Under the pieces are notes generated by a model, which made no database searches, was not told the origin of the DNA, and saw nothing but the letters and a program-made list of their open reading frames with translations. A program made the position numbers and the translations under genes. From a virus, in the IMG/VR virus record IMGVR_UViG_3300049893_000063, positions 1 to 31,323 of that record: DNA of 31,323 nucleotides; one strand, given 5' to 3'. Each line of letters begins with the position of its first letter. Within the stretch, counting starts at the first letter, position 1. Shown piece after piece: positions 2,558 through 29,158 of this stretch.

Positions 2558-2648
2558 CGTAAAGAAACCATCTAAGAAGTACACGCTGAAAAAGAATCCT
2601 TACCAGAATCCACCTAAAGGAAAGAAACGTGGGAATACTAACGGCTGA
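2499..2648 (+). CDS. Small basic protein overlapping terS and terL (49 aa)
   Basis: An ATG frame in a different phase from terS. It reads MAKVRQSPKSLLEAALFPGN and then a lysine/proline-rich tail ending GKKRGNTNG. It overlaps the last 59 bases of terS and the first 20 of terL, filling what would otherwise be a gap. An AAGG lies about 9 bases upstream of the ATG. The SLLEAALFPGN segment looks like a short helix or binding motif before a disordered basic tail. The function is unknown; position suggests packaging. It is below usual gene-caller cut-offs. Confidence 0.6.
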   Translation: MAKVRQSPKSLLEAALFPGNVKKPSKKYTLKKNPYQNPPKGKKRGNTNG

Positions 2649-2784
2649 CATTGTTGAGGGCTTTGTAAGAACTGCCCTTGCTTCAAAGTTTGATACACCA
2701 ACGGAAACACCTCTCTGTCACAGGGAATGGTGGGAGTTATGCTGCTCAGATGAGAGAAACGTCGCCATAGCAGCGCCTCGGGGT
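2629..2784 (+). CDS. terL: Terminase large subunit, exon 1
   Basis: The first 52 codons of TerL. GTG (2629) is chosen because it is the only usual start codon after the in-frame stop at 2587-2589, and AAAGGA lies about 7 bases upstream. The protein runs MGILTADIVEGFVRTALASK..., then CHREWWELCC and NVAIAAPRG, the first half of the ATPase P-loop. Translation into the following sequence gives TAA at once, so this exon makes sense only when spliced to 3433. Full coding sequence: 2629-2784 joined to 3433-4800, 507 residues, normal for a TerL. Confidence 0.88.
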
Positions 2785-3432
2785 TAACGACTAGTTACTC
2801 GGCGCAATATAAATAGAGTAAGTGCATGGCCCCGGTAAAATCCCCCTAATTCGGAGAACGGTAGAACACCCAACCCCGAGCTAAACCAGATTGTTCTGGA
2901 AATGTGTAGAGACTATACAGGGGACTCAATCCATATTCAAAAGGAGATTAAAATGAGCCGTGCTCATGATTTAGCTTGGTGTGCTGGTTTTTTTGATGGT
3001 GAAGGCTTTGTCTGTATCCAACGTCGTAAAATGAGGAGAGGAGACAAGGAATACGAGAGTCTCTATCTGCGGATAGGGATTAACCATGTAAATCCAGAAC
3101 CACTGTATGAAATGCAACGTATTTTTGGTGGTAATATTCGGGTACAGAACCCAGAGAAAGTAATAGGCAACAGGAAGCAGCGACATTCATGGTCTCTTTC
3201 CTGTCAGGCTGCAAAAGATGCATTAGTTCAAATGATGCCATACTTTCGGAATAAACAACTTGTAGCTGAACTTGGTATAGAGTTTCAAAATACAATGTCA
3301 GACAACAAGAAGAAAACACCAGAAGAGACAGTCGCATATCGTTCCTTGCTAAAACACAAAATCTCAGAGATGAATGCCAAGGATTGATGAAGATATAGTC
3401 CGACACCCGTAGGGATATGGGACTACAGAAAG
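2785..3432 (+). ncRNA. Group I self-splicing intron in terL
   Basis: A 648-nt intron beginning directly after the exon T at 2784 and ending in G (3432). The guide sequence TGCATGGCCCCG (2823-2834) pairs in two halves: GCCCCG (2829-2834) with the exon end CGGGGT (P1, with the U.G pair at the splice site), and TGCATG (2823-2828) with the 3' exon start CATGCA (P10). A Q-like element CCCCGAGCTAA lies near 2874-2884. The P7 strands GACTAT (2911-2916) and ATAGTC (3395-3400) sit in the typical contexts GTAGAGACTATAC and AGATATAGTCC. The endonuclease gene lies between the two P7 strands. Splicing restores PRGHAKST. Confidence 0.95.
2953..3387 (+). CDS. Intron-encoded LAGLIDADG-type homing endonuclease
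   Basis: A 144-residue protein with one LAGLIDADG-type helix near the N-terminus, AWCAGFFDGEG (residues 8-18). E17 takes the place of the catalytic acid. A single motif implies action as a homodimer. Family members cut the intron-less allele so that the intron is copied in by repair. The start is ATG 2953, with AAGGAG 7 bases upstream; an ATG at 2902 in the same frame is rejected because it lies in the P7 core of the intron. The gene ends just before the P7 3' strand, so it sits in a peripheral loop, as is usual for intron-borne endonucleases. Confidence 0.92.
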   Translation: MSRAHDLAWCAGFFDGEGFVCIQRRKMRRGDKEYESLYLRIGINHVNPEPLYEMQRIFGGNIRVQNPEKVIGNRKQRHSWSLSCQAAKDALVQMMPYFRNKQLVAELGIEFQNTMSDNKKKTPEETVAYRSLLKHKISEMNAKD

Positions 3433-4800
3433 CATGCAAAATCTACAGCCATTACACATTCCTTTACTCTGGCTACTGTTTTGTTCCGGGAGAGTAAGTT
3501 TGTCATGGTGGTCTCTGATACAGAGGCACAGGCAATCAACTTCCTGAACGACATCAAGGCAGAACTCCGTGAAAACTCTGACCTGATTGATCTGTTTGGC
3601 ATCAAACGATTCATCAAGGATGCTGAAACTGACTGTATTGTTGAGATGGAAGACGGACACAGGTTCAAGATCATTGCTAAGGGTGCTGAACAGAAGATCC
3701 GTGGTACTAAGTGGGATAACTACCGTCCTGACATGATTATCATCGACGATCTGGAGAACGATGAACTCGTAATGAACCCGGATCGTAGGGAAAAACTGAG
3801 AAGGTGGTTTTACGGCGCTTTAATGCCCTGTAGGAGCATCGAAGGTAAAGTTAGGTATATCGGTACTATTCTTCACATGGACGCGCTCCTAGAGCGTTTA
3901 ATGCCTTCTGAGAGGGATAAATTTACAAGGAACGACGAACTGCGTACTTGGTCTGAAAAACCGAAGCAGTTTTGGAAGTCTGTCAAGTATAAAGCACATA
4001 ATGATGACTTCTCTCAGATTTTGTGGAAAGACAGGTTTTCTAAGGAACATTTGATCAGGATTCGTCAGGAGTATGCTGACCAAGGTATGCCTGAAGGCTA
4101 CAGCCAAGAATACCTGAACTATCCACTGGACATGAGCAGGGCATACTTCCGTAGGGGTGACTTTGCTCCGATGACAGCCACAGACTTGAAGGAGATTCGT
4201 GATAAGTCAAGACCAGTAAATTATTACATTACGGCAGACTTGGCTATCTCCCAGAAGGAACGTGCTGACTATTCTGTCTTTGCTGTTGGGTGTGTGGACT
4301 CAGACAACAACCTGTACATTGTTGATGTTATTCGTGAGCGACTAGATGGTATGGAGATTGTGGGTACTATTCTGGCCTTGCAAAAGAAATACAAACCTGA
4401 ATTATTTGCTTTGGAAGATGAAAAGATCACCAAGGCTATTGGCCCTTTCTTGACAGAGAGGATGCTTACTGAGAACGTATTTCCATCAATTGTCACCGTG
4501 CGTCCTTCGGGTGACAAGCAAACAAGAGCACGTTCTATTCAGGCTCGTATGAGGATTGGTTCTGTGAAATTCAATAAACAGGAGGACTGGTATGGTGTAT
4601 TTGAGGAAGAATTACTGCGTTTCCCTAGGGACAGACATGATGACCAAGTGGATGCAATGAGCTACATGGGTCTCGTTCTTGACAAATTTATTGTCGCTCC
4701 TACTAAAGAGGAAGAGGACGAGGAAGAAATGGAAGATCTGCTTAGGGAAGCGCACGAAAACGAATCTGGATCTGGTCGGTGTGTCAGCACGGGCTACTAA
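3433..4800 (+). CDS. terL: Terminase large subunit, exon 2
   Basis: Codons 53-508 of TerL, the ATP-driven packaging motor and DNA-cutting nuclease. It begins HAKST, the second half of the P-loop. Walker B is MIIIDD (residues 153-158), with DD where many families have DE. The RNase H-like nuclease has D321 (ITADLA), E380 (ALEDEK) and D455/D459 (HDDQVDA). The protein works at the portal, with TerS. A TTG at 3481 lies in frame, but starting there would remove the P-loop, so the exon boundary at 3433 is used. The stop is followed 15 bases later by the portal start. Confidence 0.95.
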   Translation, partial: HAKSTAITHSFTLATVLFRESKFVMVVSDTEAQAINFLNDIKAELRENSDLIDLFGIKRFIKDAETDCIVEMEDGHRFKIIAKGAEQKIRGTKWDNYRPDMIIIDDLENDELVMNPDRREKLRRWFYGALMPCRSIEGKVRYIGTILHMDALLERLMPSERDKFTRNDELRTWSEKPKQFWKSVKYKAHNDDFSQILWKDRFSKEHLIRIRQEYADQGMPEGYSQEYLNYPLDMSRAYFRRGDFAPMTATDLKEIRDKSRPVNYYITADLAISQKERADYSVFAVGCVDSDNNLYIVDVIRERLDGMEIVGTILALQKKYKPELFALEDEKITKAIGPFLTERMLTENVFPSIVTVRPSGDKQTRARSIQARMRIGSVKFNKQEDWYGVFEEELLRFPRDRHDDQVDAMSYMGLVLDKFIVAPTKEEEDEEEMEDLLREAHENESGSGRCVSTGY

Positions 4801-6879: not shown

Positions 6880-7048
6880 GTGGAAACAGAGTCGCGCTAC
6901 ACAAGCGTTTCTGAAATCTATTCACGGACGAGTTGAAGACTTGAAAGAACTTCTTTCAGGAGACTGTGACGATAAAGTAACTACTACGATTCGTGGACAA
7001 ATCATGGCGTTTCGTTCTGTTCTAGATACGGAGTTTGACGATGCTTAA
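6848..7048 (+). CDS. Small head-operon protein, unknown function
   Basis: A 66-residue acidic, helical protein beginning MVEITREEFAEWKQSRATQAF. AAAAGGAG lies 7 bases before this ATG, which is preferred to an upstream in-frame ATG. It overlaps the portal 3' end and the next start. Small proteins with a REEWxEWKxxxxTxAF start often follow portal genes in phages, to my recollection without a defined role; a head-assembly or chaperone helper is possible. No domain is recognised. Confidence 0.7.
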   Translation: MVEITREEFAEWKQSRATQAFLKSIHGRVEDLKELLSGDCDDKVTTTIRGQIMAFRSVLDTEFDDA

Positions 7049-7337
7049 GGTAGTCGGACACCGAATCTTAATCCTTCCAGATGAAATAGAGAAGCAAACT
7101 CAGTCTGGTATTCTGATTGTTCCTAATGAAAAACTGGAACGTGCAGCAATGGACAGGGGAACTATTGTTGGGATAGGACAAAACGCTTGGAAAGCCTTTG
7201 ATGATGGGGAACCTTGGGCTAGTGTTGGAGACAAGATTTACTATGCAAGGCATTCCGGAAGGTTTGTGAAGGATATGGACACAGACGTTGAATATGTCCT
7301 GATCAACGATGAAGATGTTCAAGTAGTAATAAAATAG
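7041..7337 (+). CDS. GroES-like co-chaperonin
   Basis: A 98-residue protein matching the Cpn10 fold. It has GHRILILPDE at the N-terminus; a mobile-loop-like TQSGILIVPN, where GroES has its GroEL-binding hydrophobic triad; GTIVGIG, then VGDKIYY; and ends with VLINDEDVQVVI. GroES is about 97 residues. Phage versions (T4 gp31, RB49 CocO) replace or modify host GroES for capsid protein folding. Its place between portal and scaffold fits that role. ATG 7041 overlaps the upstream stop, with GGAG 7 bases before it; a TTG two codons earlier is not used. Confidence 0.88.
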   Translation: MLKVVGHRILILPDEIEKQTQSGILIVPNEKLERAAMDRGTIVGIGQNAWKAFDDGEPWASVGDKIYYARHSGRFVKDMDTDVEYVLINDEDVQVVIK

Positions 7338-15319: not shown

Positions 15320-15586
15320 ATGCCAAGTTCTAAAAACTATAAACGCAATTACAAGAAGGAATACCAGAATTATCAAGGTAGTCCTGATCAAATAAAGAAA
15401 CGTGCTGCTCGTAATAAAGCAAGAAGTGATTATGAGAAAACTAATGGCGATCTTCCATCTACCGTTGATGTAGATCATAAGAAACCTCTTGCTAAGGGTG
15501 GTAACAACTCTAAATCAAATTTAAGATCTGTACCTCGGTCAAAAAACCGTTCATTCAAACGAACGAGAAAAGCGAGGATGGCGTGA
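15320..15586 (+). CDS. Small HNH endonuclease
   Basis: An 88-residue very basic protein with an HNH-type core: VDVDHKKPLAKGG (H53), then N67 in SNLR and N76 in SKNRSF. It lacks a separate DNA-binding domain, apart from the lysine/arginine-rich N-terminus. Free-standing genes like this are often homing or packaging-associated nucleases. It sits at the right edge of the GC-rich cassette and is itself AT-rich. The stop overlaps the GTG start of the next gene. It is not far from the neck genes, so a role with terminase cannot be excluded. Confidence 0.85.
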   Translation: MPSSKNYKRNYKKEYQNYQGSPDQIKKRAARNKARSDYEKTNGDLPSTVDVDHKKPLAKGGNNSKSNLRSVPRSKNRSFKRTRKARMA

Positions 15587-22204: not shown

Positions 22205-25200
22205 ATGCCGATTCTATCCTATCGTGGGTATGATGTCGAGTTTAAAACCGACCCGACACAAGATGATATTGATGAACTGACCACTAAAATTGATCAGATG
22301 ATTGGCCCCGCAAAGAGACAAAAAACCACTCTGACGGAGGATTTCGGGGCTGGTCTTAGGGACATCTATGAAATCCCGAAGACAGGCATCGCACTTGGTC
22401 TTGCTGGGGCATCTCGTTTAGCAGGTGCTGACGACTTTGCTGAAAGTGTCCTCACTAATCTTGATGAGGATCGAAAAGCAATTCAAAAGCGAGAGGCTGG
22501 CCTTGATCGTGGTGAGTGGGGTAAGGTAGCCAAGGCTGTTGGTCAAATTCCTGCATATCTGAATCCTATCTCGGCTGGAGCAATGATTGCTGGTTCCGGT
22601 GCTGAAACAGGAATGGGGCATATTGATGCCGGAGTTGATACTGAGAATGCTATTGCTGGTATGGGTATGGATATGGCTCTTGGTACTGCTGGCATGGCTA
22701 TTCCTGCTGCTTTAGTTGCTGGTCGTCTGAAGAATGCTGTTGCTACTGCTGGTGCGAACACAGCACAAAATGCTGTCAGTCATCGTTTTCAACAAGGTAT
22801 TAGGGAAGACCAGAATGTCGCTTCTCTCCCAGATATGACTTGGGGAGACTATGCTGCTTCTGCTATCCCAGGCTTTGCGTTTGGTGCTGTTGCAGCCAAG
22901 AAAGGTGAAACTCCTTCAAACAAAGAAAATAAGACTGATGAACAGCTTCGTAAAGAAGCTGAAGATGCTTTCCTTGCCGAAGCTGAGGCTGCTCTTCCTA
23001 AAACAACTCCGTACAATAAAGACCTTATCTCTGCTGAAGAGATTGCTGCCTTCCGTGCCGAACAGCAACGCCGACAACTGGACAGGGAAAACCAAGATGT
23101 AATCAACCGGACTATGCGGGAGGAAGACTCTCCCGAGGCCGTTGTGGAAGCAGAAAAAAAGCGTACACAAGAAGCCCCGGTTCTCTTAGGGCCGGATGGA
23201 AAACCAATTCAACAACAGCAACAAGGGACACCCCTTCCTGTTAAGTCTGATTTAGAATCTGCTATCGAAAAAATCTCTTCTGGTCGTGAGTTTGATCTGA
23301 CAGCAAATGAGAAAATTGCTTGGAGCAGGGCCCCTGTGCCAGTCTTGCAACAAGTTAATCATATTCGTTCTACCCGAGACCTTGATGTAATTACTCGTGA
23401 CGTAGTGAATCCATACGACATACCGAATGCTAAGTCTCAATCTGTTGAGATTGCTCAGGCTGTTGGTGCTCCCCGTAATCCAATCACTGGTCGTTTCTGG
23501 GGTAAGAACAAGGTTGACGACAGTGCTGATCCTTCTGGTCAGTCTCAGGGTATGCCTTCTCGTCGTGAGACGTTAGAAGGTCTTGGTGTATCTTCTCACA
23601 AGCTTGACTTCATTCGTTCTCGTATTGACCAACTGGCCGGTAAGGTATCTTCTGATGCTGATAGGATAGCTCGTCGTACTGCTTTGCTTGACCGTATTGA
23701 GCAGGTGTACAAGTCTGGTGATCAGGATGCCATATTGAAGCTTGACCAGTTCTTGAATAAGAACGGGTATCGTGAGCCTATCTCTACCAAAAAGACTCAA
23801 GAAAGCGGTCTTGTAGTATCTGAGTCTTCTGCTTCTGATTGGCCCACAAGAACAAAAAGAAATGTTGATGCTGCTGATGTTACCATTGCTATGGCGCATG
23901 ATTATAGTACTGGTGGTGAGAGACTTACAAAGAGGTTAGCAGAGTCCCGTGGGTATTCTCGCTTTATCGAGTTTGCAGGATCAATTGATAACTTTGCAAA
24001 GAACATCGTAGCGGGTCTAACTAACACTCGTGGAACTAGTATTAATGTTGCTGGAAATGGTATATACACTTGGAAGCTTGGTGGTAAAACACAAGAACAA
24101 GTAAATCAAATGATGTTTGATACATTATCTAGGGTTAAGGAAATGTATCCTAATCTTAGAACAATTATTACTGGTGGTCAAACAGGTTCTGACATTGCCG
24201 GTGCGATTGCTGGCCGGGCTCTTGGTTTAAATGTTGATGTTCACATGCCGAAGGGCTTCCTGCAAAAAAATGCAGATGGCAAAACAGTGTCTAATACTAA
24301 AGAAGGTATTACTAAATACATTGAAGAGGCTGCTAAGGCACTCAGACAAGACTCCTCCAATCCTCGTGTTGAAATAATTGACGATGCTACAAAGACTAAG
24401 TACATTGCTGGAACAAGGAAAGACGGTACTATTTATGTAAACACCGCCCAGGTACGTCAACTCTTTTCTGGAGACAAAACACAGTATCTTCGAGACTCTC
24501 CACAAAAAATGAAGATGCTTGAGGCTGTTGGTGAAACTCCAGAGAAGTTTATGTCTCGCTTTGAAACTCCTGAACAGTTCATCAAATTCCTGATTGCTCA
24601 TGAACGGGCCCATATCGAATCAGGTGACTTGTCCAACTATCCGAGAACTCCTGATGGTAAACTAGACTTGATGCACCCCAAGGCAATTGAAATTGAAATT
24701 GCTGCAACCAAAGCGGGGCTTAAAGCACTCAAAGAAGAAACACAACCATCGAAACCACAAAGAACTCTTCACGAGGAGGCTGTTGCTGCTACTCGTGCGT
24801 ACTCTGACGCCCCTACTCTTGGTCGTACTACCCCGAACCTGAGACTGTCTAATACTATTGCCAACACTAAGTATGTTGGTTCGTTCCTACAGAAGATGGT
24901 TCGTGTATTGCGTATGCAGGACAGGCAGATTATTGTCATGACTCTACGCGATGCTTACAAACAGAGTCAAGCTCTGGGAGATGCTCTTGCTGCTGCTGAC
25001 GGTGACAAGTTCTCTCCGATGTTCCACGTTGCTTCTACCAGCAAGAAGGTTAGCTATATTGTTGTCCGTGAGGGTCAATACTCACTTGGTGACCTTGTAT
25101 CCGGGTCTTCTCGCAAGACAATTAAGGACATGGAGGTTATTCAAGAGGCTCGTGCAGAGGCGCGTAACCGTGGTGTTCCTGAGACTGAGATCCAAACAGA

Positions 25201-28200
25201 ACAGCGTAGCTTTGCTAATGAACAACGTGACCGTCTGACCGAGAGCAGAGAGAACAAGAAGGCTGAAGACAATCTTCCGAAACGTCGTAACGACTTCCGT
25301 AAACAAGAAGATGAGAGTGGTTCTGACATTGACTCTTCTATTCTGCGTGGAAGGATTGAGGAAGAAGGTTGGAGTCGTGATAAAGCAGAAGACTATGCTT
25401 CCAAAAGTCTTGATCCTACCCGCTGGACGGAAGAGCGTGTTACTCAACTGCTGGATGAAATCTACGGCCCACGCGATGATAGTATGTCTGGTATCACACA
25501 GTCTGTCTTGGGTGGTAATAAGGAGTCTCGTTCCTCTTTCCTTGGGCGGTATGGTGATGTAGCTAAAGCGGAGAAGGTTCGTCTTATCATGGGTCTTTCC
25601 CATGAGATGGGTCATGCCTTCATGGAACATGCACTGCTGAATGCTGACAAGGTTGCTGGTTCTAAGCCGGGTAAGACTGCGTTTGATGATCTGGTTGTTG
25701 ACTTTGTTAAGTGGGTTGGGAAGCAGAATGATGACCGTGCTTTTCTACAGAAGACTCTTGCTCAACCCGATCTGTTGGGTATGATTGGACAGACACACTT
25801 CTCTACTAAAACTGACCTGTCTGGAACTACTAAAACTCAGGTGGCGGAAACAAATCCTGCCATTGGAAAGCTTGCTAATTACTTTGGTAAGGGCGCTGAT
25901 GCTACCTTGACTAAAGAGCAACGTGCTCTTCTGACCAAGAAGGCTACTGAGCTTCTGGCAGACAACGCTGCTTTCCGTGAGAAGTTTGGTGAGTTCTTTG
26001 CAGAGCAGATTGCTCGTGGCACAACAATGAATGGCTTTAAGGCCAAGCAAGGACTTGTTGCTGAGACTGTCAGCCAACTCAAGGAATTCTTCCGTAACGT
26101 AGCTGCATACCTGCAACGTGAGTTTAACATCCCGATTAATGAGAAGGAAGTTATGACTCCGTTCATGAATAAGTTCATGGACAAGTGGTATGATCAGTAT
26201 GTTCCTGAAATGGCCGAGAAGGTACGTCTTGCTTCCATAGCCAAGGCAGACGGTGTTGATCGTCCTGACACTACAGGTTCTCAGGGAATGGCTGCTCTTG
26301 ACACGATGCTCAGGGATGTATCTAATGGTCTTCCTAGTCTCTCTGTGATCAGACAGGACGTAGGACAGATCGCTGCTGATCTTCAGAAGAACGGTATCAA
26401 GGACATTCGTCCGTTTACCGCTAATGGCATTCGTCTGTTTACTGGTCATGGACAATACTCCAAGATTGTTGCAGAACACCCCATTGTAAAACAGATTGGT
26501 ATCTTGATTCGTGATGCTGATCAGAAAGCTGCACACTGGTTTAATAATCAGATTGGTGGTACTCCTTCTGACTCTACTTATCGTAACAACTTCTGGAAGT
26601 CTGTTGCACAGGCAGATGTCCTGCAAGACAGGGACAGCTTCAAGGCTCTTAGTCGTAGGGCGTCTATTAAAGAGATCCTTAATGTAGCTAACCTGATGCG
26701 TGAGAATTATGGTAATCTTGAACACAAAGCACATTACCAGAAGCTTGTTTCTCAAGGAAAGCTCAAGTCTGATGTAGAGAAGATGCTCTACATGCGTATT
26801 GCTGATATTTCTGAAGCACAGTACAAGCGTATGGCTGATGCCTTGGCAACTGTTGGGTCTAAAATGGAGATCAATAGGGTTCCTGGATGGTATGCTGCTG
26901 TCCGTCAGGGTGAGCATGTTATCTATGCTGAGGATGCTTCTGGTAAACCTACCTATGAGGCATTCCAAACTAAAGGTGAGGCTATGCGTGGTGCCAAGAA
27001 GTATGAGAAGCTTGGCTACCGTGTATCGTATCAACATGAACCATCGCGGTATCGTGGTGAGTTGTCTCGTGAAATGGAACAAGCAATCCTTGATCAGATC
27101 AGTAACCTTCCTGAGAAGGATGCTGTCCGTACCATGCTAGAGGATATGGTCTATCAAAAAGCTTCTGCTGGTTTCGGAGGTGGTAAGAATGACTTGTCCA
27201 AACACTTCAAGTATCGTGAGAACTATGAGGGCTCCAAGGGATTCTCTCGTATTCGTTCTGATAGGGAGAATGCCCTGAACTTCTTGGAAGCTGTACAAGA
27301 GTCGGCCCACTCCTACAATCGTTTTGCAAGAAACCTAGAACTGCTTCATTCCTCTGAGCCGATTGTTGGTCGTTCTTCGGAACTGAACAGCACCCATGAG
27401 AATGCTACTCTTGCTGCACAGATGTTCCGGGATCATGCTATTGGTCGTCGTCCTTTTGGAGAGAGTGCTGAACTGGTAAACAAGGTTCTTGACAAGATCT
27501 CCGAGGGTAGTCGCTGGCTAATCAACAAACCATTTGATGCTGTTGGCAATGTGATTGGCAGGGACATTCGTCCTTTGCGTACAGATGTGAATGCTTTCCA
27601 TCAGATTAACAACAGGTTCTCTCAGATGTTCTATATCTGGGCTCTTACTACCCGTCCTCAGTTCTGGGCGTCTCAGGTAGCATCCCCGTTGCTTGGTCTT
27701 CGTGCGCTGACACACGCTAAGGTACGCTTCGGTGATGAGAACGTGAACATCTTCAAGGGACTTCTGGAAGGCACACACGCTCTTGTCAGTAATCCCAAGG
27801 ACTTCATGGACTTCTTTGTGTGGGCAAAGCAGAACACTGAGACTTTTAATCCTCAGCTTGTTGCTGAGATGAATCGTATTGAGATGTTCCGTAACAACCA
27901 GTCGATGGAAAAGGTCTGGGAGTGGATTTCTGGACAAATTCCTGCACAGGCATCTGACTCATTCTCTCGTGTCATGACTGCCTCCATGTTCTACCATGCC
28001 ATGAAAGATAGCAAGCAGTTCAAGTCTAAAGAAGACCTGTTTCGTCGTGTGGCTATGGAAACTGACAATGCAATGATCAGTTACCGCAGGGCTGATCGTC
28101 CTGAGTTGTATGGCCGTGCCGGACAGCTTGGAGAGCTTGCTGGCCCCCTGACTACGTTCTACCACGGTACTGTTGGTAACTTCATTGCTGATGCTAAGAT

Positions 28201-29158
28201 GGCTGCTGAAATTCGTAGCATTGGGGATGTCAACAAACTGTACCCATTGCTTGTCTCTCAAGCAACATTCATGACCCTCGGTGGTGTAATTGGTGTGGTT
28301 GGTTATGCTGAAGCAGAACTGTTCATCAAATTTGCTAATTACTTGCTTGGACTTGCTGGTGTTGAACAACGCATTCCTTCTCTGTACGAAACACTGATCA
28401 AAATGGATGATGAGTGGTTGGGTGGACAGACTGCCAAGGACATGCTGATTCACGGTGTTCCTTCTGGTGCTACTGGTTTGGACATTGGTGCTTCTATGAG
28501 GGCTGCTCCGATTGTTTCTCAGATTGCTGTTGGGGATCGTAAGTGGTTTGAAATGTTCCCGCAAGTAAGCTTTATGATGAAACAGGTTCCTGCCTTCGGT
28601 ACTAAGATTCAGGCAGAGGTTTACAAGCAGACTGGTTTTGGTAAGCCTGTGACTTCTGCTGAAGAGGATGAGGCTACTAAGCAGGTAGTACCCGGTGGTT
28701 ATCGTGGGCTTGCTCGTGAGTTGGGTGCATTCTCGGATCAGGGTGTGTCTGTTACTCAGGGAACCAAGAGAAGCATGGGAGGTGTTGAGCGTAACATCGA
28801 AGAGAAGATTGCTGAATATATTGGTGGTCGTTCTCTTGCTCAAGCTAAATCCCAAAGGTCTATGAGCCAAGCTAAGGGCAAAGAGCAGTCTTATGTCGAG
28901 GCTCGTCAGCGTGGTGTTGACTTGGTGACTGATGGAGTTATGGAAGGACGGGACGACAAGATTCAAAGTGGTATTGACCTTCTTGTTAAGTCTGGACTCA
29001 ACGGTAAACAAATCAATGATGCTATCTATAATGCAATGATCAACCGTATGACTCCTGAGCAGATGCGCTGGATTACCAATAAGGGCAAGTTTACTGGGTC
29101 TGCTACGCAGAAACGGCACTTTGAACAACTGTATCCATATATGGAAGACATGGAATGA
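22205..29158 (+). CDS. Giant polyvalent ejection protein with SLOG-like and zincin motifs
   Basis: A 2317-residue protein. In order: short beta N-terminus (YRGYDVEFKTDPTQDDIDEL); a glycine/alanine-rich hydrophobic zone (about 115-190) that could insert in a membrane; charged helices; a SLOG-type Rossmann motif IITGGQTGSDIAGAIAG (about 654-670), as in nucleotide/molybdenum-carrier-like proteins; HERAH (H799, E800, H803); HEMGH (H1133, E1134, H1137) with EFFAEQIA about 130 residues on as possible third ligand; a long helical C-terminal half with a hydrophobic stretch near 2015-2050. This matches phage polyvalent proteins sent into the cell with DNA. Stop overlaps the endolysin start. Confidence 0.75.
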   Translation: MPILSYRGYDVEFKTDPTQDDIDELTTKIDQMIGPAKRQKTTLTEDFGAGLRDIYEIPKTGIALGLAGASRLAGADDFAESVLTNLDEDRKAIQKREAGLDRGEWGKVAKAVGQIPAYLNPISAGAMIAGSGAETGMGHIDAGVDTENAIAGMGMDMALGTAGMAIPAALVAGRLKNAVATAGANTAQNAVSHRFQQGIREDQNVASLPDMTWGDYAASAIPGFAFGAVAAKKGETPSNKENKTDEQLRKEAEDAFLAEAEAALPKTTPYNKDLISAEEIAAFRAEQQRRQLDRENQDVINRTMREEDSPEAVVEAEKKRTQEAPVLLGPDGKPIQQQQQGTPLPVKSDLESAIEKISSGREFDLTANEKIAWSRAPVPVLQQVNHIRSTRDLDVITRDVVNPYDIPNAKSQSVEIAQAVGAPRNPITGRFWGKNKVDDSADPSGQSQGMPSRRETLEGLGVSSHKLDFIRSRIDQLAGKVSSDADRIARRTALLDRIEQVYKSGDQDAILKLDQFLNKNGYREPISTKKTQESGLVVSESSASDWPTRTKRNVDAADVTIAMAHDYSTGGERLTKRLAESRGYSRFIEFAGSIDNFAKNIVAGLTNTRGTSINVAGNGIYTWKLGGKTQEQVNQMMFDTLSRVKEMYPNLRTIITGGQTGSDIAGAIAGRALGLNVDVHMPKGFLQKNADGKTVSNTKEGITKYIEEAAKALRQDSSNPRVEIIDDATKTKYIAGTRKDGTIYVNTAQVRQLFSGDKTQYLRDSPQKMKMLEAVGETPEKFMSRFETPEQFIKFLIAHERAHIESGDLSNYPRTPDGKLDLMHPKAIEIEIAATKAGLKALKEETQPSKPQRTLHEEAVAATRAYSDAPTLGRTTPNLRLSNTIANTKYVGSFLQKMVRVLRMQDRQIIVMTLRDAYKQSQALGDALAAADGDKFSPMFHVASTSKKVSYIVVREGQYSLGDLVSGSSRKTIKDMEVIQEARAEARNRGVPETEIQTEQRSFANEQRDRLTESRENKKAEDNLPKRRNDFRKQEDESGSDIDSSILRGRIEEEGWSRDKAEDYASKSLDPTRWTEERVTQLLDEIYGPRDDSMSGITQSVLGGNKESRSSFLGRYGDVAKAEKVRLIMGLSHEMGHAFMEHALLNADKVAGSKPGKTAFDDLVVDFVKWVGKQNDDRAFLQKTLAQPDLLGMIGQTHFSTKTDLSGTTKTQVAETNPAIGKLANYFGKGADATLTKEQRALLTKKATELLADNAAFREKFGEFFAEQIARGTTMNGFKAKQGLVAETVSQLKEFFRNVAAYLQREFNIPINEKEVMTPFMNKFMDKWYDQYVPEMAEKVRLASIAKADGVDRPDTTGSQGMAALDTMLRDVSNGLPSLSVIRQDVGQIAADLQKNGIKDIRPFTANGIRLFTGHGQYSKIVAEHPIVKQIGILIRDADQKAAHWFNNQIGGTPSDSTYRNNFWKSVAQADVLQDRDSFKALSRRASIKEILNVANLMRENYGNLEHKAHYQKLVSQGKLKSDVEKMLYMRIADISEAQYKRMADALATVGSKMEINRVPGWYAAVRQGEHVIYAEDASGKPTYEAFQTKGEAMRGAKKYEKLGYRVSYQHEPSRYRGELSREMEQAILDQISNLPEKDAVRTMLEDMVYQKASAGFGGGKNDLSKHFKYRENYEGSKGFSRIRSDRENALNFLEAVQESAHSYNRFARNLELLHSSEPIVGRSSELNSTHENATLAAQMFRDHAIGRRPFGESAELVNKVLDKISEGSRWLINKPFDAVGNVIGRDIRPLRTDVNAFHQINNRFSQMFYIWALTTRPQFWASQVASPLLGLRALTHAKVRFGDENVNIFKGLLEGTHALVSNPKDFMDFFVWAKQNTETFNPQLVAEMNRIEMFRNNQSMEKVWEWISGQIPAQASDSFSRVMTASMFYHAMKDSKQFKSKEDLFRRVAMETDNAMISYRRADRPELYGRAGQLGELAGPLTTFYHGTVGNFIADAKMAAEIRSIGDVNKLYPLLVSQATFMTLGGVIGVVGYAEAELFIKFANYLLGLAGVEQRIPSLYETLIKMDDEWLGGQTAKDMLIHGVPSGATGLDIGASMRAAPIVSQIAVGDRKWFEMFPQVSFMMKQVPAFGTKIQAEVYKQTGFGKPVTSAEEDEATKQVVPGGYRGLARELGAFSDQGVSVTQGTKRSMGGVERNIEEKIAEYIGGRSLAQAKSQRSMSQAKGKEQSYVEARQRGVDLVTDGVMEGRDDKIQSGIDLLVKSGLNGKQINDAIYNAMINRMTPEQMRWITNKGKFTGSATQKRHFEQLYPYMEDME

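What the first reader, a model, noticed from the sequence alone, without database searches (positions are those of the whole stretch)
2785..3432. Group I intron with LAGLIDADG-type endonuclease splits the terminase P-loop
Exon 1 ends ...APRG and exon 2 starts HAKST, so the intron lies in the middle of the Walker A loop, the most conserved site of the packaging motor. Both splice sites are readable: TGCATG+GCCCCG (2823-2834) pairs with CATGCA (3' exon) and CGGGGT (5' exon). P7 strands and a terminal G are present. Group I introns in phage terL genes have been described (for example Lactobacillus phage LL-H), so novelty lies in the exact site, host and endonuclease pairing, not in the principle. 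Because TAA follows at once, no unspliced product could have ATPase activity.
Basis: partly seen in the sequence, partly recalled or inferred. Interest (0 to 1): 0.8.

Follow-up and report, generated by a model that had tools for sequence, protein, structure and literature searches.

The report
Mobile self-splicing intron in phage terminase
An uncultured phage carries a self-splicing RNA element with its own DNA-cutting enzyme in the middle of the ATP-binding site of its DNA-packaging motor gene; at least ten related elements sit at exactly the same point in distantly related phages, so it is a real, spreading genetic parasite of a known kind.

Summary
The finding is confirmed. Window 2785-3432 is a group I intron in terL, inserted between Gly52 and His53 of the Walker A sequence APRG^HAKST. 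Its P8 loop encodes a single-motif LAGLIDADG endonuclease of I-CreI/I-MsoI fold (2953-3387). Rfam's group I model matches end to end at 47.3 bits, just under its cut-off of 50; two same-site relatives exceed it. At least ten other distinct contigs carry introns at exactly this codon boundary, while 84 of 88 close TerL loci are uninterrupted. An intron-free/intron-bearing pair, 93% identical in TerL, shows the precise empty site. Guides covary with synonymous changes in their own exons. The intron is scattered over the TerL tree; endonucleases 67% identical lie in terminases 32% identical; one intron keeps only an endonuclease remnant; ribozyme and endonuclease trees disagree. This is a homing intron; terL group I introns and TerL P-loop inteins are already published. 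Less expected: the loop GGCGC of a hairpin in P1 is complementary to exon GCGCC. Nine of nine introns with the hairpin show complementarity, one through a compensatory change, while 1 of 73 intronless alleles has that exon sequence. Splicing and cleavage were not tested.

The parts
2629..2784 (+). terL exon 1 (52 codons, GTG start), ends inside the Walker A loop (APRG)
   Evidence: tblastn of the joined protein to intronless and intron-bearing relatives
2785..3432 (+). group I intron, 648 nt, begins UAA (in-frame stop) and ends G
   Evidence: RF00028 47.3 bits over 2776-3422; empty alleles; same-site relatives
2773..2777 (+). exon GCGCC (Ala-Pro codons), complementary to the loop at 2801-2805
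   Evidence: present in all intron alleles with the GGCGC loop, in 1 of 73 distinct intronless alleles
2778..2784 (+). P1, 5' exon strand UCGGGGU (U.G at the splice site)
2795..2821 (+). hairpin in the P1 loop: stem UUACUC/GAGUAA, 15-nt loop GGCGCAAUAUAAAUA
   Evidence: variable stems, conserved loop GGCGCnnUAyAAAU in most same-site relatives
2823..2835 (+). internal guide sequence: P10 strand UGCAUG (2823-2828) and P1 strand GCCCCGG (2829-2835)
   Evidence: guides covary with their own exons; for P1, 0 of 20000 shuffles reach the observed pairing
2840..2925 (+). catalytic core, 5' half: P3 5' (AUCCCC 2840-2845), P4 5' (2850-2856), P5, P4 3' (2874-2880), P6 hairpin (2886-2899), P7 5' (GACUAUA 2911-2917), P3 3' (GGGGAC 2920-2925)
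   Evidence: cmscan alignment, coordinates
2926..2932 (+). P8 5' strand UCAAUCC
2953..3387 (+). LAGLIDADG homing endonuclease ORF (144 aa) in the P8 loop, SD AAAGGAG at 2940-2946; its stop codon lies in the P8 3' strand
   Evidence: Pfam LAGLIDADG_1; AlphaFold2 pLDDT 91; Foldseek top hits I-CvuI, I-CreI, I-MsoI; profile hits to the same
3381..3387 (+). P8 3' strand GGAUUGA
3394..3400 (+). P7 3' strand UAUAGUC
3406..3421 (+). P9 hairpin CCCGUA-GGGA-UAUGGG (GNRA loop)
   Evidence: 9 distinct P9 stems in 10 introns, all with a GNRA loop
3433..4800 (+). terL exon 2 (455 codons + stop), starts HAKST; first 6 nt CAUGCA pair with the P10 strand

Best explanation
It is a homing group I intron. The terL pre-mRNA folds so that the IGS (2823-2835) aligns both exon ends. 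Guanosine bound in P7 attacks after U2784, exon 1 then attacks after G3432, and ligation restores the Walker A codons GGT|CAT and a 507-residue TerL. Without splicing, the UAA at 2785 stops translation after 52 residues, so no motor ATPase can be made. The endonuclease encoded in the P8 loop would dimerise like I-CreI, cut intron-free terL alleles of co-infecting phages across the conserved P-loop codons, and be copied in by repair. Shown by sequence: intron core, boundaries, exon-guide covariation, empty alleles, horizontal spread, endonuclease family. Inferred: self-splicing, cleavage, homing. A further inferred feature is that the loop GGCGC (2801-2805) of a hairpin in the P1 loop pairs with exon GCGCC (2773-2777), giving extra 5'-exon recognition pseudoknotted with P1.
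For: RF00028 full-length match, E 8.5e-11, with relatives at 74.2 and 52.4 bits. Same-site introns in L008, L009, L031, L033/L034, L036, L037, L038, L314, L325 and L386. Continuous P-loop in 84 of 88 nearest TerL loci, the other four being three truncated contigs and one same-site intron. Exact empty-site pair L129/L038: blastn breaks at L038 2414|3104 against contiguous L129 2294|2295, TerL 93% identical. Guide-exon pairing in 112 of 130 cells; for P1 alone 67 of 70 with 0 of 20000 guide shuffles as good; P10 changes CAT:AUG to CAC:GUG. Scatter on the TerL tree, at least 5 changes. L009/L037 endonucleases 67% but TerL 32% identical. Endonuclease remnant in L325. I-CreI/I-MsoI fold. Exon-loop complementarity with one compensatory change.
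Against: The window's own Rfam score is below the gathering threshold. No RNA data exist. All close relatives with the intron are metagenomic contigs. L009 and L386 end in A instead of the otherwise universal terminal G, so some same-site copies may splice poorly. The exon:loop pairing rests on an association plus a single compensatory change (the middle pair), and it would be a pseudoknot with P1.
Confidence: 0.95

Rival explanations
1. A degenerate, no longer splicing intron: terL is dead or supplied in trans and the element is a relic.
For: Rfam score slightly under the gathering cut-off; some same-site copies have lost the endonuclease (L325) or end in A (L009, L386).
Against: All core helices, 13/13 guide pairing, terminal G, GNRA P9 loop, intact endonuclease ORF with SD, and intact exon 2 with conserved TerL motifs are kept in the window. 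A dead terL would not be expected to stay conserved.
Confidence: 0.03
2. An intein or a free-standing endonuclease insertion rather than an RNA intron.
For: Inteins with endonuclease domains occur in TerL P-loops (PMC5050341).
Against: The insert starts with a stop codon in frame with exon 1, the endonuclease has its own start and SD, no intein domain was found in the ORF, and group I core and guide pairing are present and covarying.
Confidence: 0.01
3. The exon GCGCC / loop GGCGC complementarity is not RNA pairing but reflects the endonuclease's target preference or exon co-conversion carried with the intron. (This rival concerns only the added pairing, not the intron itself.)
For: Intron homing co-converts flanking exon, and endonuclease sites lie near the insertion point (PMC2988022). 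Eight of nine cases are identical, so most of the signal is association, not covariation.
Against: Codons on both sides of GCGCC vary freely between the alleles (GCA, GAG, GCG, GCT, GCC before it; CCN and several Arg codons after it), which co-conversion blocks would not do. L386 has GCCCC with loop GGGGC. The two introns without the hairpin, L009 and L038, lack GCGCC.
Confidence: 0.35

Closest known systems
Group I introns in phage terL: Lactobacillus phage LL-H (Mikkonen and Alatossava 1995, cited in PMC4299906), Bacillus phage Moonbeam (PMC4299906), Bastillevirinae incl. SIOphi and phiAGATE (PMC11878797)
   Same: group I introns in the large terminase gene, several with endonuclease genes; splicing shown in vitro or in infected cells for SIOphi and phiAGATE TerL
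   Different: an endonuclease family tabulated in Bastillevirinae terL introns is of VSR/HNH type (PMC11878797), here LAGLIDADG; different terminase family; the insertion sites in those phages were not compared here
TerL1-a and TerL1-b inteins of mycobacteriophages (PMC5050341)
   Same: mobile element with homing endonuclease in the P-loop of TerL
   Different: protein splicing, not RNA splicing; inserted between the Walker Lys and Thr (TerL1-a) or one residue away (TerL1-b), here two codons before the Lys
Phage T4 td/nrdB/nrdD group I introns (PMC2988022)
   Same: phage group I introns with homing endonucleases at functionally critical sites; 3' parts of L033/L036/L038 resemble td (from memory)
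   Different: T4 introns encode GIY-YIG or HNH enzymes; the window's core lacks the insert between P7 5' and P3 3' that L033-L038 have
I-CreI / I-CvuI / I-MsoI homing endonucleases
   Same: single LAGLIDADG motif, same fold (Foldseek E about 4e-7 to 9e-6), encoded in group I introns
   Different: about 20% identity; known ones lie in algal organelle rRNA introns (from general knowledge), here a phage protein gene

Membership tests
group I intron | P3-P9 core with P7 guanosine-binding helix | tested here: met
   RF00028 whole-model alignment, 47.3 bits, E 8.5e-11 (below GA 50); relatives 74.2 and 52.4 bits
group I intron | IGS pairing with 5' exon ending in U.G, and P10 with 3' exon | tested here: met
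   13/13 pairs; covariation over 10 introns
group I intron | terminal G | tested here: met
   G3432 in the window; A in relatives L009 and L386
group I intron | precise absence in related alleles | tested here: met
   L129/L038 pair; 84 continuous TerL loci
group I intron | guanosine-dependent self-splicing | not testable with these tools
   needs RNA
LAGLIDADG homing endonuclease (single-motif) | LAGLIDADG motif and domain | tested here: met
   AGFFDGEGF at the N-terminus, PF00961 29.6 bits against 23.1
LAGLIDADG homing endonuclease (single-motif) | I-CreI-like fold | tested here: met
   AF2 pLDDT 91, Foldseek I-CvuI/I-CreI/I-MsoI
LAGLIDADG homing endonuclease (single-motif) | cleavage of the intronless site | not testable with these tools
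   needs protein
phage terminase large subunit | Walker A, Walker B, RNase H-like nuclease domain | tested here: met
   joined APRGHAKST, IIIDD, PF17289 25.1 bits against 22.6, TIGR01630, phrog_38
intein | in-frame insert with splicing domains | tested here: not met
   in-frame UAA at the first intron codon; no intein domain in the ORF
group I subgroup IA (P7.1/P7.2) | extra hairpins between P7 5' and P3 3' | tested here: not met
   window goes straight from P7 5' to P3 3'; L033-L038, L314, L325, L386 have an insert there

The most novel reading that the evidence does not exclude
These same-site introns use a previously undescribed extra 5'-exon recognition element: a hairpin in the P1 loop whose loop (GGCGC, or GGGGC in L386) pairs with exon nucleotides -12 to -8, pseudoknotted with P1. 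It constrains a synonymous codon of the terminase P-loop. Ribozyme cores and endonucleases at this site have been swapped between phages.
Probability: 0.45. Interest if true: 0.6.

Novelty: new member of a known kind. Interest (0 to 1): 0.42.

Why it matters
It gives a well-bounded case of a phage gene kept active only by RNA splicing at its catalytic loop, with natural empty, full and endonuclease-degenerate alleles at one site. That makes the homing cycle and the convergence of introns and inteins on the terminase P-loop testable. If the exon:P1-loop pairing is real, group I introns can read more of their 5' exon than P1 alone, which matters for splice-site fidelity and for trans-splicing ribozyme design.

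Tried and rejected
Rfam gathering scan of the whole window: no hit; resolved with evalue mode. Endonuclease alignment search of genome contigs: no relative. blastn of terL in INPHARED phages: only a 5% match in Alcaligenes phage vB_Af_QDWS535, whose terL spans the record start and is intron-free. The P1 drawn by cmscan (pairing the exon end with bases just downstream of the splice site) was rejected because it sets no U.G splice site; the IGS at 2823-2835 does. The chance value of the guide match alone is modest (1 of 3000 shuffles), so it was not used as proof. No dedicated covariance model was built. Most hits of the DNA patterns were chance matches in unrelated sequence. Two paper searches, for exon:P1-loop pseudoknots and for introns without a terminal G, returned nothing that by title and abstract deals with these questions; the hits were not read in full, and subscription literature is not held.

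Full report
What is there. The terL reading frame opens at 2629 and stops after 52 codons at TAA 2785-2787, and TerL resumes in frame at 3433. Joining 2784 to 3433 gives ...AIAAPRG|HAKSTAITH..., a continuous TerL of 507 residues. Its C-terminal part matches Terminase_6C, phrog_38 and TIGR01630.

The RNA. Rfam's group I model matches 2776-3422 over its full length with 47.3 bits, E 8.5e-11 for the 861-nt stretch searched. That is below Rfam's curated score of 50, so the plain scan of the window shows nothing. The helices and their coordinates are in the parts list. The internal guide 2823-2835 pairs with all seven last bases of exon 1 (U.G at the splice site) and the first six of exon 2.

Empty sites. 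Of 88 TerL loci most like this one, 84 run straight through the P-loop, three are truncated, and one has an intron at the same place. Alcaligenes phage vB_Af_QDWS535 (one of the three truncated) is continuous across its record start. The cleanest pair is L129 (no intron) and L038 (intron). Their TerL proteins are 93% identical, and the DNA alignment breaks at exactly 2414|3104 of L038 against 2294|2295 of L129.

A same-site family. Searching with the endonuclease, and then with DNA patterns, gave introns at the identical codon boundary in L008, L009, L031, L033, L034 (near-identical to L033), L036, L037, L038, L314, L325 and L386. All start UAA except L037 (CGA); all end in G except L009 and L386 (A). 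Across ten of them (the window included) the guides match their own exons in 112 of 130 cells. For P1 none of 20000 reassignments of guides to exons reached the observed 67 of 70. In P10, exon CAT goes with AUG and exon CAC with GUG. P9 stems differ almost everywhere but always close a GNRA loop.

Mobility. On a tree of 91 TerL proteins the intron label needs at least five changes (several long branches, so exact placement is unsure). L009 and L037 have endonucleases 67% identical but terminases 32% identical. L325 retains only a remnant of the endonuclease, matching residues 103-138. The ribozyme cores of W (the window), L008, L009 and L031 form one group (98/96) that lacks an insert between P7 and P3, while the endonuclease of L009 groups with those of L037 and L314 (99/99), whose cores have that insert. 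The simplest reading is that endonuclease and ribozyme have been exchanged between introns at the same site. Those trees are of short sequences and should be read with care.

The endonuclease. The 144-residue ORF has one LAGLIDADG motif (AGFFDGEGF), passes the Pfam cut-off, and folds with mean pLDDT 91. It is most like I-CvuI, I-CreI and I-MsoI by structure and by profile. A single motif implies a homodimer (established for I-CreI; inferred here).

An unexpected feature. Between the 5' splice site and the guide, nine distinct introns have a hairpin with a variable stem and a loop GGCGCnnUAyAAAU or close to it (L008 GGCGCUAAAUAAAU); the L031 stem is weak. The GGCGC is complementary to exon GCGCC, 8-12 nt upstream of the splice site. 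Eight of these introns have exactly that exon, against 1 of 73 distinct intronless alleles, although the Ala codon GCG is a synonymous choice (Fisher p 2.8e-10, which ignores relatedness). The ninth, L386, has exon GCCCC and loop GGGGC. In one search the script's table printed 'NO' for L037 because it picked the first GGNGC in GGGGCGCGG; GGCGC is present there. The two introns without the hairpin (L009, L038) have other exon codons and a single longer P1 with one U-U mismatch. The most likely reading is an additional exon:loop pairing, pseudoknotted with P1. Endonuclease target preference or co-conversion are the alternatives. One compensatory change is not proof.

Comparison with what is known. 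Group I introns in terL are published (LL-H and Moonbeam, PMC4299906; Bastillevirinae, with splicing shown, PMC11878797). Inteins sit in the TerL P-loop (PMC5050341), and insertion at functionally critical sites is a recognised trait of phage introns (PMC2988022). In the open papers searched I found no report of this site with a LAGLIDADG intron, but subscription papers were not searched. The object is therefore a new member of a known kind, with one possible structural novelty.

Limits. No RNA or enzyme data; all intron-bearing relatives are metagenomic contigs; the window is a 31-kb virus fragment of unknown host.

Noticed in passing
L009:2865-3457 and L386:214 to the base before CACGCAAAATCC: Two same-site introns end in A instead of the nearly universal terminal G, with the P7 GACUA/UAGUC strands unchanged; unexplained (assembly error, poor splicing, or real exception).
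   Followed up: partly
L325 (reverse strand, intron of 370 nt after exon base 423): Same-site intron with only a C-terminal remnant of the endonuclease: a natural degenerate stage of the homing cycle.
   Followed up: partly
TerL P-loop position 52 in intronless relatives: The Gly before the insertion site is often Tyr, Ser, Asn, Arg or Ala in intronless alleles (APRYHAKST in 20), but always Gly (GGT) in intron alleles; perhaps a homing-resistant variant or a splice-site need.
   Followed up: partly
window 15320-15586 and L008:468-737: Homologous-looking small HNH proteins (VDHK..P..KGG motif) lie far from terL in the window but directly upstream of terL in L008.
   Followed up: no
window 7035-7337: GroES-like co-chaperonin in the head module, as in MW202796.1 and Alcaligenes phage QDWS535 (from annotation of the relatives and appearance of the sequence).
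   Followed up: no
window 22205-29158: 2317-residue polyprotein-like virion gene with no NCBIfam match.
   Followed up: no
L037 exon 1 / intron start (L037:1655): Intron starts CGA, so exon 1 reads on for 42 codons into the intron, unlike all other members, which stop at once.
   Followed up: no
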